From: Saccoglossus kowalevskii
Taxonomy: Eukaryota; Hemichordata; Enteropneusta; Harrimaniidae
Direction: 5' to 3'
NCBI RefSeq assembly: GCF_000003605.2
Contig: NW_003156746.1
Coordinates: forward strand, 137,992 to 173,997
Length of the DNA stretch: 36,006 nucleotides
Under the pieces are notes generated by a model. It searched no databases and was not told the DNA's origin. It was given only the letters and a program-made list of their open reading frames with translations. The position numbers were made by a program, and so were the translations under genes. The first letter of the stretch is position 1; each line of letters begins with the position of its first letter. Of this stretch, positions 4,583 through 17,300 are shown piece by piece.

Positions 4583-5205
4583 TGCTACTTTCATTCAACC
4601 AATCAAATTTACAATCAATAACTGACCATGGTGAGATATTACTAGCGTATTACCTAGGCATAGTTGATGGCATTTTCATTCAACCAATCAAATTCACAGT
4701 CAATAACTGACCATGGTGATATATTACTAGCATCACACCAAGGCATAGTTGATGGCACTTTCATTCAACCAATCAAATTTACAGTCAATAACTGACCATG
4801 GTGAGATATTACTAGCATCATACCTAGGCATAGTTGATGACACTTTCATTCAATCAATCAAATTTACAGTCAATAACTGACCATGGTGAGATATTACTAG
4901 CATCATACCTAGGCATAGTTGATGACACTTTCATTCAATCAATCAAATTTACAGTCAATAACTGACCATGGTGAGACTATACTAGCATCACACCTAGGCA
5001 TAGTTGATGGCACATTCATTCAACCAATCAAATTTACAGTCAATAATTGACCATGGTGAGATATTACTAGCATCACACCTAGGCATAGTTGATGGCACTT
5101 TCATTCAACCAATCAAATTTACAGTCAATAACTGACCATGGTGAGATATCACTAGCATCATTTCTAGGCACAGTTAATGCCATTTTCAAGCAACCAAGCA
5201 AACTT
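4583..5205. repeat. 85-bp tandem repeat (minisatellite), about 7 units
   Basis: The block CAATAACTGACCATGGTGAG recurs at a constant 85-bp step from about 4616 to 5126. Each unit also contains CAACCAATCAAATTTACAG and CTAGGCATAGTTGATG. Units are about 90-97% alike; the last decays after 5170. It sits in the probable 3' UTR intron of ataxin-2. Confidence 0.93.
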
Positions 5206-5238
5206 ATTATCTAGCAAAGTACAGAGATAAACACTCAC

Positions 5239-8300: not shown

Positions 8301-11300
8301 TTTCTTTTCAGCAAATCCCAATAAGAACTGACAATTCATTTACCCTGAATTGGAGCTTGTCTTGCCCATGTACTATGAAATTGGGCCCTACTGTCTACTA
8401 TTTGGGGAGTCTGGGAAGTAGAATTTGAAGTTTGACACTAGCCAGGTTGCTCATGTGCTTTAAAGATCATAAGATACAAGCTAGAAATGTCTCATAGTAA
8501 TCAAATCAAGATATAGCAACATAGAAAAGGTGTGTGTGTTGTAGCAAATACAGGCAATAAATCACCATCACTCCTTCATACCAAGCAAACCCAAAGATTA
8601 GTAGAAGTTAGAATAACATGAACAAGAATTTACTAAATGTATCTCCAAGCTACTACCCAAGATTAGACAACTACAGTCTACGTGTGATAACAGCAAGACA
8701 AAAAATGGTGAATCTATGGTTAAAATGAGCTCAAAGTGAAATTCATCGTGTTTTTTTTTTCACCTGGAGAATTCATTCGTTGTGGTGCAGCACTGTAATA
8801 AGCATTGCTTTCCGTTAGCACCATAACCTTACCATCGACTGGAAAAATAGAATAAACAGAAAAAAAAAATACATATGTACCAATCACTTGACTGTATTGG
8901 CTTGCAGTGTTACGTTTCCATGATCACCCAAATGCTAAATTTTACGTATCGACATATTGGTGAACAATGCATGAACAAGAGAAGAAAGTGAGAGAGAGGG
9001 ATGGGGATTGGCAGTAGCTGACATTTGAACTTGACACGACTAATTGACAAGTAAATATCATGCTGACCTCTAGTAAGGAGATAAAATCAATTGGACCAAA
9101 CTTAACAACGTTAATTGGTCAAATGTCCATGAATTTGTTGCCAGCACAGAGAAAACCAGGTATTATTATTTTCAAAATACATCAATGAAAAATAAAAACT
9201 CACCTTGCAAGTAAGGAGCAGACATGGCAGCTGGAGCATTAGATACTACAACACCTGCAGTGCCACCAGCATGAGCGGCAGCAGTTGCAGCAGCCTGTGA
9301 CCCGTGAGGGTGGGGGGCCTGGGGAATCACCATCACCGGCTGTTGCTGCTGCATGGGAGGAGGCTGCTGGTGCGTGTGAGGGTAAGGATGTGGGTGAACC
9401 GGAGTGACAGTAGTGATGTGAGGGTTGGGGGGATGAGACACTACAGGAACCTGTTGCATTTGGTGAGGTTGTGCTTGTGCTTGTGAGAGTGTCGGCTGGG
9501 GTTGTGCGTGCATGCCTTGCGGGGACTGAGCCAAAGGCTGTGGGGGCATCTGGTGCGGGTTCTGGTAGATGATCTGATGAGAGGGCTGTTGGGGTATATG
9601 CGTGTTCTGAGTTGGTGGCTGTCCTGAATGGGGTACTTGGTGGACTGGGCTCGGTGCTTGATGCACGTGTTGCTGCTGCTGCAGCTGTTGTTGTCCAGCC
9701 ATCTGGGTCTGCTGCTGCGTCTGACCTTGTTGCTGACCCTGTAAGGGAGGGGTGTGAGGCTGCTGAACATGGCCGTGATGCATGTGTGGCTGTGGCTGAG
9801 GGTGCTGCTGTTGATGGGCTTGGTGCTGATGCTGTGCTTGGGGATGTGGCATGGGCTGAGGTATCGTCGGGCCTTGAGGAGACACTGGAAAAAATGACAG
9901 TAGTAAATAGAAGGGCACACTGGAAATACAACAAGGTAATACGAGTCAATAACAAGAAATTTCAGAAATGACGTTGAATTCTCGTGAAAATAGGAACAGT
10001 TTTATTTGAATGTTTGTTCAATTCTATGATTAAAGTATTCCATCAGAGTAACAATATATATGCAAATGCCGCTAAAAAGATGTCCATCAGTTCAATATAT
10101 CATTATAATATTCGTCTATTATATTCAAGGAAAATTTATCATGAAACAAAAGCTGAGTCACCTTCCCAGGGCACTATCGACCCAGGACAAATATTGGTTC
10201 AACTTACTCAATACGTGGGTTGCTGATGCCTGTACATCTTGTGGCGACATTTGATAGGTATGCTGAGCTTGAGGATGAGGAGAACTCTGCAAGGCACCCT
10301 GTATTCTGTACATAGGCTAGAAATGCAAATGAGAAGCATACACCTCATTAGGTATTTACAAGGAGTGTCACTGCGCATAATTTGTTGAACAAACCCCCCC
10401 TTGAGAATTTATGTTTAATGTTTAAATAACCTTTTCACCACCAATTCCCTCTTTTCATCACAAATTTACAAAATAGTCATGTTTATAGTGCGTACTTTCC
10501 TTCAGAAGATTAGGACAAAAATAGCCAAATGTTTTAAGTAACAATACATGAATGTCACAGTCCCCATTATTTAATTATAAAATACTCATGTTAAAATAAT
10601 ACATTGAACAACTGCAAACAATTGAATTAATATGTACTTTTCATTGACTCGGGTCCAAAATTGCAGAGTAGACAAGTGCAAACAAACTACGTCTCATACA
10701 TGCTCAAGAAACTGCATTCATAAATCTGAGTAAACCTTGATGTACCTTTAATAACAACTTGCCTTCTTTGTTAATTCAGGTCTTTGTAATATTACCAGGA
10801 CCTGGGTTTGTTTCATTATCACCACTATAATTCCCATCAAAATGTAGCCCCGACACCCCTCAATATTTTCCACTGAGATTGGTAATGGTACAAACCATCT
10901 GTCACTGATTCAGATCAAGGTCATGACATCACTAAAAACCTGAGCATTAAAATCTAAGCTAATTATTTATTCTGAGCATGCTCAGTTGCTTTGTCAGTGC
11001 TGTAGGGAGAGGTAGTTTTGGATGAAAATGTTGAAAAAGACCTGCGCCTGAACTGGGACTATAAACTTAAAATTTACTCAAAATTTGTCTGTTGGCTTCA
11101 AAATTAAGATTCATTTCCAGAAATGTTGAAGAATATAAGAAAAGAATGCACACAAATTGGGGCATGAAAGTCTGGTGTTAAAAAAGGTTTAGATAGAAAG
11201 ATAAAACTGAGAGAAAAAAACAAGTTACCTTTTGAGGGTACTGCGTCATATGTTGATAGTGGACTGGTTGTTGCATAACATGCTGTCCCATCATCGCTTG

Positions 11301-14300
11301 GGTGTGTTGCGTGGGATAATGCACAAACTGCGCCTGGGAATAGTGCATGGGTGCCATTATAGGCTGTCCAGCCGCTGCAGATGCTGGCATAATGTGCCCA
11401 CTTTGACTAATGTCCACATGAGGTGGCTGTGGGCGCTGTTGTGGCATCATGGGAGCTGGCGAAAGTAAAAAACAATGAATCAGTTATTTGTGAGTCCGAT
11501 AATTGCTGAGTTCGTTTCTGATTGGAGTGTGATTTATACAAACGCAACTTGACATGGTAAAGTCATTTTTATAAATTTTGGTCTGGGCGTGGTTTTGGTT
11601 CAAGTAATTGTGTTTTGATGAACATGTTGCTTTCTGACAACAAATGTTTTTGTAATCATCGATATTTAATTTGTATTTTGTAATAATTTTGTATTTTAAA
11701 ACATTTACTGTTTTTTTAAAACTATTTTTTTTCAGAAGTGTTTATGGTAGTTATATCTAAAGTTGAACAGTTAATATTTAAGCAAATTTTAAAATATTTC
11801 TATTAATTTCTATATTTTACAATTATTCATTTACAAAACTAACTGCAGCAAGAGTAATACAAGTGTTCCAGAGTTTTCAGAATTTATCAGATCAGCAAAG
11901 TGGAAAAGGGGTTAGCACAGAGTACATCATGATTTATCTTGTATGTGAAATACAATAAAATGATTTTGGTTTCAGAGACAGACACTTTATCTCAAATACT
12001 GATAGTAAAAATCTCACCTCTTTTTTGAGGGTAGGCAGCTTTTTGTGGCACCTGAGGCACTCCACCTGACCCAATCATGTGTTGCATCTGAGTGTGCGGT
12101 GAAGCCACGACATATGAACCCTGTATGTTGGAAATCACAGGCTGTCCAGTGTAAGACATCGAATGTGGAACTTGCATGACAGCCTGGGGTGGCATTATAA
12201 CAGGACTGGGCTGCTGTTGTCTCGGAGGAGTTGGTGTCTTCGGCACACTAGCCTTCTATTGAAAAGCACACATTATATACAAAAGTTAAAAAAACCTCAT
12301 CCCCAAAACACAAACAAATTTACAAAGTTACAGAGTACAAGCCATCATGGAAGAATTTCACTCATTTGTTATCTAACATACTAGTACCGTATTACACCAG
12401 GCACGCGCCCAGGGGCCTGAACATACAAAATCGGGAAAAATTGGGGGTGGGCGCTTACCCGAGGACCATCCCAAAAAAGATTTAAAAAAGTTGTTTTTGT
12501 GATCGTATGATAAGGTCAAATAAAGGAATGCTTTCGTACACTTTGTACACGTACTTATTTCTTGATTTATGCGAGGTTTCAATAAACGTGAGCACTCTGT
12601 CAAGAACTGTGGGAACACTAAGGTCGACACAGGGTTGAATTTCAAGAATAAAACTTGTTTTATGTCAGCGAATGAAGTTGTATTAGGCACTGAAATTGGC
12701 TACAAAGTATGGTAAGTATTGTAATCAATGCACGGTTACTTTTTTAGTAACCGTGATCAGTGCAAGTCGAAACGGCCGGGAAAAACTACCGCTTAATCCA
12801 AGATGGTGATGACCTCATTAACATAATTTATTGATACATCGCATCATAATTACTGAAGAATAGCAGACAGGGTTATGAAACAAATAAACCTTTTATTACT
12901 GATGTGAAATGTTTACAAACTATTATGAATACATAAACATATCCAAATGGCGATACATAAAAAACAGACTGAAAATAAACTCTGGTCGACGTCATTAACA
13001 TGATTTATTCACGAACCCACACACATGACAAAATTCTGATGCAACAAGTTCACCCACCGTCGGCATGTCTCATTATGGTTATCATAATGGACTTGAGGTC
13101 GGCAAAATGTTTTTTCTTCAACGACAGAAAAATAATCCACATGACCGTAATGCCATAGTTGTGATGAAGGATGGAAAGAAAGTAGCAAGTTTACGACGTG
13201 ATGTCTCAAAAGTGCTAGCTCCCGTTCACAGTCAGCTGGCATAGGTGTCGCTGGGTGTATATGATGGAGGGAAGTTGTGCAAAAAAATTTGCCGAGTTCG
13301 CAGTATTTCCCCGATAAAAAAAAAACTAAGGCAAAAACTCAGTTTTTCAGCATTTTTGTAATAAAGACATTATTTTCTATCAATAATCCGCCCAAAATAG
13401 GAACATTTCTACTAATTCTTGTGTTTTTTGACGTTTTTCGAAAAACCTGCGATTAGGCTGCGAAAGTAGAACATTCCGAAGGGGGTGAAACGGAAGAGCA
13501 TCACGAGGCGATGGATGCGGGGCTCTTTAGCAACGACCGCAAACGTATCGTGTCAAGCCATTGGTTGGCCACATAGAGGTCAAAATACGCGTTCTATTTT
13601 TACGCGTTAAGTTTGGCTCTTCCGTTTCACCCCCTCTGGAATGTGCTCCTGTTATGGATTCACAGTCAGCGAAGTGCTACGTTTTGAAACCAAAGCTAAG
13701 TGCTTCAAACCACTCACCAAAGTATGGATTATTGCAATATTGGATTCATCGTGAATGAAGAGAAAGCAGAACGTATGCGCCACATGCTGCGTGGTTCATC
13801 TTACGCTGTTAAGCTCCATTGAGTTTTTACGTAAAAACACAAACAAAACGGCCCTTTTCAGGGCCACCACACACTCCAAAAAGAGAACTGCCGTGACAAA
13901 CACACTATTTAAATAAATCAAACGCGTTCGTTTTTGACAAATAAAACTTTATTGTTGACCCCGTTCTTGGCTAAAGAATCACCCTGGGCGTTTAACCGAG
14001 GATGTCCCCAACATTTAACTTTTGTGAAATCAAGGGTAGGGCGCTTGCCCGGGGAGGGGCGCGTGCCCGGGGTAATACGGCACATGAATGATGGGGGGAT
14101 GGTCTTTGCGACACATGTCTAATACAGTGTGTGTTAGGACACCCTCTAGTGGCAGTCATTAGAATCAAGTGAGTAATGTCTTAATAGCAGCCAAAACGTG
14201 AAAGCAGCGAAAGAATACTTACAGGGGCAAACGGCTTTGCTTGTGGATTAAACTTGAACTCTTTAGCATTTGGATTAAGGGTAGACTTCTTAGGGGGGCT

Positions 14301-17300
14301 GTAATGAAAAAATAAATAAATTCTTAATCCGTGTCAAGAAAAACAAAGAAAAAGTGAATTTATTCACTTTATTGATTAACAATTAATGTATTTTGAAGTA
14401 ACGTGCACTGGTGATCATAATTAAAAGGCAATTTACACTGGATACATCAATCAGATTGGAAATATACCAATCTAAAATGAGTCTTATTATCAATTTCAAA
14501 ATACTGACCTAACAAACCGATGCAGAGCTAATACGGTATATACAACACTGGCAGTTCCATGATAAACTTACGATTGTGCGAAATTAGACTTACTCATCAG
14601 GTTTTTGATTTTCGTCAGGATTACTAGTTGGTGTTGGGGTAGTACTCGTACAAGTCTCCTTTGTCGTAGTTGCAGTCGTCTCTGTGGCAACAGTAGTTGG
14701 GCTACTTGTATCAGGAGTGGGCTTGCATTCTGGATTGTCTTTTGCAGCGTCTTTTTCTACCTCTCTACCTTTCTCACCTTGTAACTGGAGCAAAAAGAGA
14801 AAAATTAACTTTTTAATCGAAGACGGAGAGACAAGATTTACACCTATCAAATGTACTATCGTACTTCCCCGAGTATAAGCCTAGGCCTGAACATGTAAAA
14901 TTAGGGGGTGGGCTTATACTCGAGGTCCACCTTAAACAAAATATTTTTTGGTGGGTTTAAAATTGTGACCATCTTCCCAACCTCGAAAAATTATCCAAAC
15001 TACATTTTTTTGTTCACAGCGCCGGTCTCTGAGAAATATTACGTCTTTTTGAGAAACAAATACGAGTAGTCATGATTTCCACGACAATTTTTACAATGAA
15101 GAAACAAACATGTTCATAAAAATACACACATTTTATTACAATACGGTTTACATACCGTCTGAATTTACAGTGCAAAAATGGGTAGGATCTGTGGGAAAAC
15201 GGTCGAAGGCAAGATCTTTATCATTATCTTCGTTGTACAAACTCTCGATACAAAGCTATTTCCGTAATGGTGTTTCTCATCATGATTTGACCTGAACAAC
15301 TTCATTCGACCTAACAGGTCACGTCTTTCAGTCGAAGTAATTTTTTCAACGCAATGCGGAAGTGAATTACAGCGATGTTAAAATTCGATCTGTTAACACT
15401 GATTTCGATAAAAAAAGCGATATATTTCTTAAAAGCTGTTGATTCACAATTTTCGAAAGGTAAACTGAGGGTGGGGGAAGTACTTAAATCTTTCACGGCC
15501 GTCAACAAGTCATGTCAAAGAATAGTTTGCTCGACTACTACTCAAAAAAAATATTGATTATTTCAGTATTGAAACATCGGAGTTCATCCCGAGTAAATAA
15601 CAGAATAGAAAAGGTGCTGACTATGTTCCATACGTTCGCCATGCACTATGAAATTAAAGAATTTTCTCGTAAAAGCTGCAACCAAACTACTGTACCAATC
15701 ATGATTTTTATGCAATGAAATACACTTATTACATGCATATTATAATAAATGTCGTCGACGTCCAGTAAAAACACCCTGGGCCTATACTCGGGGATGCCTC
15801 AACTCGTAAAATGTCTAAAAACAGAGGGGTGGGCTTATACTCGGGGAAGTGCGGTACTGTCAATTTTCACTTAGAATTCATTTCGCTATTTTCACTGAAG
15901 AAATGAATCAGTGGAAATGAAATCATTTCAAAATTACCATACATTTTGTTATTATACAGGTAGATTTTATTGATTGCCCATATTAATTGCAATATTAGGC
16001 TAGTTTCCATACCAACCACTTTCAAAATCAATTTTTTACTATTGGTGTTGCAATATAATGCTCTGCATATTTTTTAAGCCCATGGGAAAACTTGAAACGT
16101 GACAAATTCCTCACAAACAAGTGGTTTTTGAAATATGAAAACTGTTAAAATTATTATTCTTCTACTCTTTTTGGTAAGGCCAGACTTTGATCACGATTCT
16201 CCCACGAAAATGCAGATAAAAATAATATTTTTTTGCGCTCACAAGTCGGCGTGCGCGAGAATTACGCTGAAATAAAATTATATTTTTATTTTATTTTTGG
16301 CTTCTGTTCATTCGGCGGGTTCACGAAACAAGGGATAATAAAAGTCTGGCCTAATAAATCTGATCTTTTAGATAATAGGCATAATAAACATAGTGTAAAA
16401 TTCACTTCTAAGGGGCACTTACATGTATTTGCATATTTTTAGTCAAAATCCAGTTACTATATTTAGGAATGTGAAATGGAGATGTTAAATTAAATGAACA
16501 TAGTTTTGGAATAAATAACTAATGTCTGTTTTGTTGAACAATAAATTTCAAACTTACTATAAATTGTGAACTAAATTTCTTCAAATCTTCAAGACCATTA
16601 CGAGCTGGAAAACAACGCATACATGTGACGATTAGTTACTATCATATTCATAGACATCATGGATTTATCAAATAGCATCCAAGTATACAGGCATTCATAA
16701 AAAACACTACCAGTTTGTATTATGCTCAGAAAACATTTCACTGACTTCTGTTAGCTTAAACTTTGTTCACATCGGGGCCATTGCTGTTTGACAAAATTAT
16801 GTTTCATTTGGTGATTAGCCACCACAATTAGCGGCCCAATATTTCATGAACAGCTGTGTGCGAAGTAACCTTAAATTAACGGAACTGCTAAATTCTTAAT
16901 TTTCGGTTCACAAACAGAAATTTGCATACTGTGATGTATTTTATGGGGTTGGAAACAAGCCTGTTCCCATTAATTCCATAAGCTAACAGACTTACATTTT
17001 GGCTTACCATGAGCAGTTGGTTTCTTTTCAACTGGGCTAACTACAGAACTATTACTATCTTGTTGTGGCGGGGATGTCAACGGCAGTTGCTGAGGTTGGT
17101 CAGGATTTGGTGTAGAGGCAGCTACAGTTGGACTGTTACTAATACTACTACTATTGTTGGCGACATTTTGTGCTGGCTGACTGGGAGGTTTTGGATCGGG
17201 TGGCGCTCCTCTAACAACATCACTAAGTTTTCTCCTGTCTTGGTATGCTGATGGCGGTGCGGGTGCACCAACTTCAGGTGGTTTTCTGTCACCCCTTTCA

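What the first reader, a model, noticed from the sequence alone, without database searches (positions are those of the whole stretch)
13850..13890. Histone-type mRNA 3' end (stem-loop plus U7 element) with no histone gene, inside an intronic transposon
Seen: a 16-nt stem-loop with loop TTTC, correct 5' flank, ACCA at the cleavage site, and CCAAAAAGAGAACTG 11 nt after the stem. Known: this pair of signals is diagnostic of replication-dependent histone genes and directs SLBP/U7 cleavage without polyadenylation. The upstream frames do not encode any histone. Inference: either a mobile element captured the tail of a histone gene, or it uses S-phase histone-type 3' processing for its own RNA. Either would be unusual, and both parts look undecayed.
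Basis: partly seen in the sequence, partly recalled or inferred. Interest (0 to 1): 0.75.

Follow-up and report, generated by a model that had tools for sequence, protein, structure and literature searches.

The report
Transposon gene with histone-type mRNA end
A family of animal DNA transposons carries a small gene for a HIRAN-domain (DNA-end-binding type) protein that ends with the host's histone-type mRNA signal, which suggests a jumping element that may express a non-histone gene through the cell's S-phase histone machinery.

Summary
Rfam calls Histone3 (RF00032) at 13845-13890, 39.9 bits, E 1.7e-8. Window 13839-13894 matches ten of the same genome's histone 3' ends at 48-51 of 56 bases. 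The signal sits in a 1.7-kb TIR element (12387-14080, TA target sites). 34 of 35 aligned copies carry the region, so it belongs to the family, not to this insertion.

The frame upstream is a stand-alone HIRAN domain (Pfam 40 bits); a stop codon in line with it lies 27 nt before the stem, as in host H4 genes (27-38 nt in four). A second subfamily (B) shares only element ends, HIRAN frame and stem-loop/U7 block. Between A and B, four-fold sites are 19-38% identical, yet the 58-nt block is 74-86% identical in the six of nine B loci that keep it, and dN/dS is low. That points to ancestral selection on protein and signal.

Best reading: a transposon gene that borrowed histone mRNA processing, probably for S-phase expression. 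This rests on sequence alone: the window copy's gene is broken, copies decay neutrally, no transposase was found, and no RNA data were available.

The parts
12387..14080 (+). whole transposon copy (subfamily A) with imperfect terminal inverted repeats CCGTATTAC.../...GTAATACGG
   Evidence: the repeat finder pair I2; ends shared by the 29 copies listed; coordinates
12385..12386 (.). left target-site dinucleotide TA
14081..14082 (.). right target-site dinucleotide, CA here (TA in 27 of the 29 copies listed)
   Evidence: (counted by eye)
13065..13244 (+). 5' part of the HIRAN-domain gene; in this copy it ends early (TAG 13242-13244) where an insert begins
   Evidence: Pfam PF08797 40.1 bits on 13029-13241; stop position
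13237..13644 (.). about 0.4-kb insert absent from many copies; its inner part lies inverted in others
   Evidence: copy structures (edges uncertain by about 10-20 bases because of short direct repeats)
13654..13822 (+). 3' part of the HIRAN gene (frameshifted in this copy), ending in stop codon TGA 13820-13822
13845..13849 (+). A-rich 5' flank of the stem-loop
13850..13865 (+). histone-type stem-loop, 6-bp stem, loop TTTC (SLBP-site type)
   Evidence: RF00032
13866..13869 (+). ACCA, the expected cleavage site (position by analogy with histone mRNAs)
   Evidence: cleavage not tested
13876..13890 (+). histone downstream element (U7 snRNA-pairing type) CCAAAAAGAGAACTG
   Evidence: same letters as several host histone genes up to the last base
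13912..13945 (+). two AATAAA hexamers (13912, 13940) downstream: possible fallback polyadenylation sites

Best explanation
The window copy is a decayed member of a family of TIR DNA transposons (TA target sites) whose lineage carries a gene without visible introns: a stand-alone HIRAN domain of roughly 115-125 residues. The mRNA of that gene ended, in the active ancestors, like a replication-dependent histone mRNA: stem-loop 21-27 nt after the stop codon, cleavage after ACCA by the U7 machinery pairing to the CCAAAAAGAGAACT element, no poly(A) tail, and so (inferred) accumulation in S phase. The signal matches the host's histone genes and was probably taken from one before the subfamilies split; selection then held both the protein and the signal while the rest diverged. 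The HIRAN product may bind DNA 3' ends or forks during replication and help the element move or copy itself then. Shown: the signal, the gene, their arrangement, their conservation between subfamilies. Inferred: SLBP/U7 processing, S-phase expression, any role of HIRAN in transposition.
For: RF00032 at 39.9 bits. The same signal in the host's histone genes: 10 matches at the gathering score in 7 of 8 H4-bearing loci, 6 of them behind H4 itself. Signal region in 34 of 35 subfamily-A copies: six pairs kept in 21 of 35, five in 11 of 35; exact downstream element in 26 of 35. HIRAN by Pfam in the window and in 4 of 4 further loci scanned, and by profile against HLTF structures, E 1.2e-6. A and B share only TIR ends, HIRAN frame and the block. 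In 18 A x B pairs (three A loci, the six B loci that keep the block): block 43-50 of 58 identical, four-fold sites 5-10 of 20-31, the 35 nt before the block 35-42%. In 27 A x B pairs (all nine B loci) pS 0.63-0.83 and pN 0.17-0.34. The stop-to-stem gap is 27 nt in the window, 21 nt in the three B loci measured, and 27-38 nt in four host H4 genes; sense strand in these.
Against: No RNA evidence. Within A the block is no better conserved than its surroundings (0.958 against 0.95-0.99 per 20-base bin), and three within-A comparisons of the frame show no constraint (dN/dS 0.41-3.14 on few changes), as expected for dead copies. Only 15 of 35 A copies keep the exact stem-loop. Three of nine B loci have lost the block wholly or in part (18-37 of 58 positions match); at lax thresholds RF00032 is found in 4 of 9 B loci and in 7 of 20 further HIRAN loci. 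No copy I read has both a complete HIRAN frame and an intact signal; L058 and L064 come nearest but lack the DRNAI codons of the HIRAN core. 7 of 29 A loci by script (8 with L068 by eye) lack them and still multiplied. AATAAA sites follow the block. No transposase was found, so how the elements move is unknown. Genome-wide counts of RF00032, U7 and SLBP could not be obtained.
Confidence: 0.6

Rival explanations
1. The HIRAN gene with a histone-type end is (or was) a host gene. Selection acted on it in the host, and transposons of one TIR type captured it more than once; in the elements the signal has no role.
For: Conservation between A and B would arise just as well in a host gene; lineage C (L099) has an intact 137-aa frame; at least 7 of 29 A loci lack HIRAN core residues, so the protein was not needed in cis.
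Against: A and B share TIR ends and the same internal order and strand; L099 also ends in a TIR-like CGAATTTACGG next to its HIRAN gene. I recognised no copy outside such an element among the loci read, but many flanks were short and were not checked one by one.
Confidence: 0.2
2. A histone 3' end was captured passively and rode along; it never had a function in the element, and transcripts, if any, use the AATAAA sites.
For: Within subfamily A the block decays like its surroundings; three of nine B loci have lost it in whole or part; AATAAA at 13912 and 13940; the window copy's gene is broken.
Against: Where the block is kept in B it is 74-86% identical to A, while four-fold sites are 19-38% and the preceding 35 nt 35-42% identical; it sits right after the stop codon in both; stem, loop type and stem-to-U7 spacing match the host's.
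Confidence: 0.13
3. The block was acquired separately by A and B from histone genes, or overwritten by gene conversion, so its similarity says little about selection in the element.
For: Over the 46 Rfam positions the window differs from the host ends at 3-7 and B copies differ from them at about six (by eye), no more than A and B differ from each other.
Against: Would need two captures at the same spot behind the same gene, with the same strand and spacing; lineage C has a decayed version in the same place.
Confidence: 0.07

Closest known systems
Replication-dependent histone mRNA 3' end (Rfam RF00032, SLBP stem-loop plus U7 histone downstream element)
   Same: stem, loop, flanks, spacing and downstream element; distance to the stop codon; 48-51 of 56 letters shared with this host's H4, H2A and H2B ends (H2B and two of three H2A named by eye)
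   Different: the gene in front is a HIRAN gene inside a transposon, not a histone gene
HIRAN domain of HLTF/Rad5 (PF08797)
   Same: core HIRAN sequence by Pfam and against HLTF structures; the N90-N91 pair, whose double mutation impaired HLTF's HIRAN function (PMC4666394, section 16 read), is kept in subfamily A by the alignment
   Different: stands alone without RING or helicase; the stacking tyrosines Y72 and Y93 named in that section align with histidines here (my reading)
TIR DNA transposons with TA target sites (Tc1/mariner or ISL2EU type; names recalled, not tested)
   Same: terminal inverted repeats, TA on both sides in most of the 29 copies listed, many dispersed copies
   Different: no transposase frame noticed in the copies read; carries a HIRAN gene with a histone-type end

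Membership tests
RF00032 histone 3' stem-loop | covariance-model score at or above the gathering score | tested here: met
   39.9 against 34 bits; other copies both above and below
Replication-dependent histone 3' processing signal | downstream purine-rich element able to pair with U7 snRNA at the right spacing | tested here: inconclusive
   letters and spacing as in the host histone genes, but the host U7 snRNA could not be retrieved
Replication-dependent histone 3' processing signal | SLBP/U7-dependent cleavage, no poly(A) tail, S-phase accumulation | not testable with these tools
   needs RNA data
Replication-dependent histone gene | encodes a core or linker histone | tested here: not met
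   the frame before the signal is HIRAN; of three window frames given to Pfam none matched a histone
HIRAN domain family PF08797 | Pfam score above the gathering score | tested here: met
   40.1 against 24.7 bits in the window; 26.9-47.4 in 4 of 4 other loci scanned
Tc1/mariner-type DNA transposon | TIR and TA target-site duplication | tested here: met
   by eye, TA on the left in 27 and on the right in 27 of the 29 copies listed
Tc1/mariner-type DNA transposon | related transposase in the element or in an autonomous partner | not tested
   no transposase-like frame noticed by eye among frames of 75 aa or more in 5 B elements (one of these frames scanned with Pfam, no hit); genome searches for DDE_1 unanswered

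The most novel reading that the evidence does not exclude
A lineage of DNA transposons has put its own accessory gene, a stand-alone HIRAN protein of the DNA-3'-end/fork-binding kind, under the cell's histone mRNA system, so that the protein is made only while DNA is replicating and ties transposition or copy gain to S phase. This would be a non-histone gene with the complete SLBP/U7 signal, kept by selection.
Probability: 0.38. Interest if true: 0.88.

Novelty: new variant of a known kind. Interest (0 to 1): 0.72.

Why it matters
The histone stem-loop/U7 system is taught (recalled) as private to replication-dependent histone genes; one 2009 paper states that there was no evidence of SLBP binding non-histone RNAs (PMC2781718, passages seen). 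A repeat family that kept the whole signal behind another gene would show that the system can be borrowed, and would link a mobile element's expression to DNA replication, where several cut-and-paste elements are thought (recalled) to gain copies. It is testable directly in total RNA. My paper searches found no report of it: histone stem-loop + transposable element 0 papers; SLBP + U7 snRNA + transposon 2, neither on this judging by title and abstract start; histone stem-loop + non-histone + SLBP 1, the paper just named; replication-dependent histone + DNA transposon + stem-loop 0; histone genes + transposons + stem-loop binding protein + capture 0; HIRAN domain + transposable elements 4, none on this judging by title and abstract start; HIRAN + ISL2EU 0. 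A first search for HIRAN + transposon (1,678 papers, 15 listed) was useless: the 15 listed, by title, have nothing to do with the domain, and the word presumably also begins personal names.

Tried and rejected
Chance hairpin: rejected (E 1.7e-8, and 48-51 of 56 identity to ten host histone 3' ends). Signal unique to this insertion: rejected (34 of 35 copies). Histone pseudogene upstream: rejected, the frame is HIRAN. A viral source: the HIRAN profile found no relative in viral contigs (records near this genome may be left out there). An upstream frame of subfamily B has no Pfam match. Lineage C as a third clean case: only partly so; L099 has an intact frame and, 16 nt after its stop (by eye), a histone-like sequence (31 of 34 letters by eye against the host) with two broken stem pairs that Rfam does not call, and two cousins show none in the 131 bases fetched of each (L105, L106).

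Not obtained: genome-wide counts of RF00032, U7 (RF00066), HIRAN (PF08797), DDE_1 (PF03184), SLBP and TIR pairs. The machine was busy at every try. The L099 protein query was also busy six times and was answered at last. Searches were waiting scripts.

Rows left out of the A x B comparison: B loci L069, L071 and L073, where the block is lost or broken (added), and A loci L042 (internal deletion) and L043 (entered in the wrong orientation, a slip of mine; one search repeats the block comparison without both and gives the same numbers).

Full report
Observation. The stem-loop and downstream element are in the window as described. Rfam finds one family in 36 kb at its gathering thresholds, Histone3 (RF00032), at 13845-13890 with 39.9 bits (gathering score 34, E 1.7e-8) over the full model. 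The stem is GGCCCT/AGGGCC with loop TTTC at 13850-13865, ACCA follows at 13866-13869, and CCAAAAAGAGAACTG starts 10 nt after the stem.

The host's own histones. A histone H4 query found 13 places in this genome (572 Mb, species not given), seven of them full length and identical. Eight of the 13 were fetched as loci. They gave 10 RF00032 matches at the gathering score in seven of the eight loci: six behind H4 and four behind neighbouring genes (H2A and H2B, one by a motif and the rest by eye); the H4 genes of L077 and L080 have none at that score. Window 13839-13894 matches these ten ends at 48-51 of 56 bases, and at 39-43 of the 46 Rfam positions. Outside this block the element and the histone genes are not visibly alike. 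So the element carries the functional unit of this host's histone mRNAs and no visible more.

The element. It runs from 12387 to 14080 with imperfect terminal inverted repeats beginning CCGTATTAC, flanked by TA and CA; in the 29 copies listed TA stands on the left in 27 and on the right in 27, by eye. The genome search scored 40 of 404 candidates for the 3' part and all 40 matched, so there are at least 40 copies of it. The copy lies in an intron of a gene on the other strand that is probably ataxin-2 (PAM2 motif in a neighbouring exon, Pfam PF07145; the gene name is that family's description plus recall).

The signal in other copies. I aligned 35 copies of 13651-14090, the window's own included (of L001-L038, L001 and L020 were dropped as duplicates and L003 for lack of this part). 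34 of 35 contain the stem-loop region; L004 has it deleted. The exact stem-loop is in 15 of 35, six pairs in 21, five pairs in 11, fewer in 3; the exact downstream element is in 26 of 35. Within this subfamily the block is no more conserved than its surroundings, as expected if copies decay after insertion.

The gene. The plus-strand frame at 13029-13244 is a HIRAN domain (PF08797, 40.1 bits, cut-off 24.7). In this copy an insert of about 0.4 kb breaks the gene. Several copies without the insert continue the frame towards a stop codon just before the stem-loop. In the window that stop (TGA 13820-13822) is 27 nt before the stem; in three B loci the stop is 21 nt before it, and in four host H4 genes 27-38 nt. 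A profile of eight copies matches the HIRAN domain of human HLTF structures at E 1.2e-6. In HLTF this domain recruits the protein to stalled forks, and of the cavity changes tested there only the double change of residues 90 and 91 impaired its function fully (PMC4666394; abstract and section 16 read). Subfamily A keeps the two asparagines, but both stacking tyrosines named there align with histidines (my reading).

A second subfamily and the test for selection. A HIRAN query found 150 places among 150 scored of 243 candidates. L069-L076, at 50-68% protein identity, and L054 belong to a second subfamily, B, with ends TACCGTATTTATCCGGG or nearly so in the five copies whose ends I read. A and B align only at their ends, in the HIRAN frame and in the stem-loop/downstream block. 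For 27 A x B comparisons of the frame (three A, nine B loci) pS is 0.63-0.83, near saturation, and pN 0.17-0.34; dN/dS where it can be computed is 0.07-0.23. Three comparisons within A show no constraint (0.41-3.14, few changes). For 18 A x B pairs (three A loci, six B loci) the 58-nt block is identical at 43-50 positions, four-fold synonymous sites at 5-10 of 20-31, and the 35 nt before the block at 35-42% (the block counts were repeated in a cleaner alignment). The other three B loci have lost the block in whole or part and match at only 18-37 of 58. Neutral sequence has been randomised between A and B while protein and, where still present, signal were held. This is the central result. It concerns the ancestors of the subfamilies, not the present copies.

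Limits of that result. Rfam at lax thresholds finds the signal in 8 of 14 loci (4 of 9 B loci) and in 7 of 20 further HIRAN loci. Of the other 13, a mutated stem-loop can be read by eye in L089, L093, L094, L096 and L098; L092 keeps a fragment and L102 the downstream element only; L088, L091, L097 and L104 show none; L085 was not read that far; L099 is lineage C. L099, a third and more distant HIRAN lineage, has an intact 137-aa frame and a histone-like sequence with two broken stem pairs 16 nt after its stop; Rfam does not call it, and two cousins show nothing in the short stretches fetched. Its right end resembles the other elements' ends (CGAATTTACGG). No copy that I read joins a complete HIRAN frame with an intact signal; L058 and L064 reach the normal stop and keep a paired stem, but lack the DRNAI codons of the HIRAN core, as do seven of 29 A loci by script and eight with L068 by eye, these two included.

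Mechanism. Most likely the active ancestors made a non-polyadenylated HIRAN mRNA through SLBP and U7, and therefore in S phase; the protein could act at replication forks or DNA 3' ends. The first step follows from the signal's completeness and its conservation next to the stop codon; the second follows from established knowledge of histone mRNAs; the third is inference from the HLTF domain. Processing, timing and any effect on transposition are untested. The elements read have no recognised transposase, so they are non-autonomous as far as seen.

Relation to known systems. The signal is a member of RF00032. The gene is not a histone gene. The element works like a TA-target TIR transposon, but its superfamily was not established. 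My paper searches found no mobile element or other non-histone gene with this signal, and one 2009 paper states that SLBP had not been implicated beyond histones (PMC2781718, passages seen). Only open-licence papers were searched, so a report elsewhere, or a repeat-database entry describing these elements, cannot be excluded.

Verdict. I rate it a new variant of a known kind, interest 0.72; sequence evidence for past function is good, direct evidence is absent.

Noticed in passing
window 13465-13650: A 35-nt inverted repeat (13465-13499/13616-13650) bounds a segment that lies inverted at the same place in many other copies, while a larger surrounding insert is inverted or absent in others; it looks like an internal invertible or fold-back piece.
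   Followed up: partly
window 14181-14330 and about 9172-9945, minus strand: Exons of what is probably ataxin-2 (PAM2 motif; glutamine-rich frame, not tested); the element lies antisense in one of its introns.
   Followed up: partly
window 4587-5206: Tandem array of an 85-base unit, 7.3 copies, 92% matches.
   Followed up: no
L099 (G000:C1492:904220-905100): A distant HIRAN frame of 137 aa is open from end to end with a decayed histone-like 3' end; a possible domesticated or late-active copy.
   Followed up: partly
subfamily A loci L056, L058, L060, L062, L064, L065, L067 (and L068 by eye): A shared 15-nt in-frame deletion removes the DRNAI codons of the HIRAN core, yet this sub-lineage multiplied.
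   Followed up: partly
subfamily B loci such as L070, L075, L095: Several B copies have an extra GGCC just before the stem (GGCCGGC...), a small local duplication at the stem-loop.
   Followed up: no
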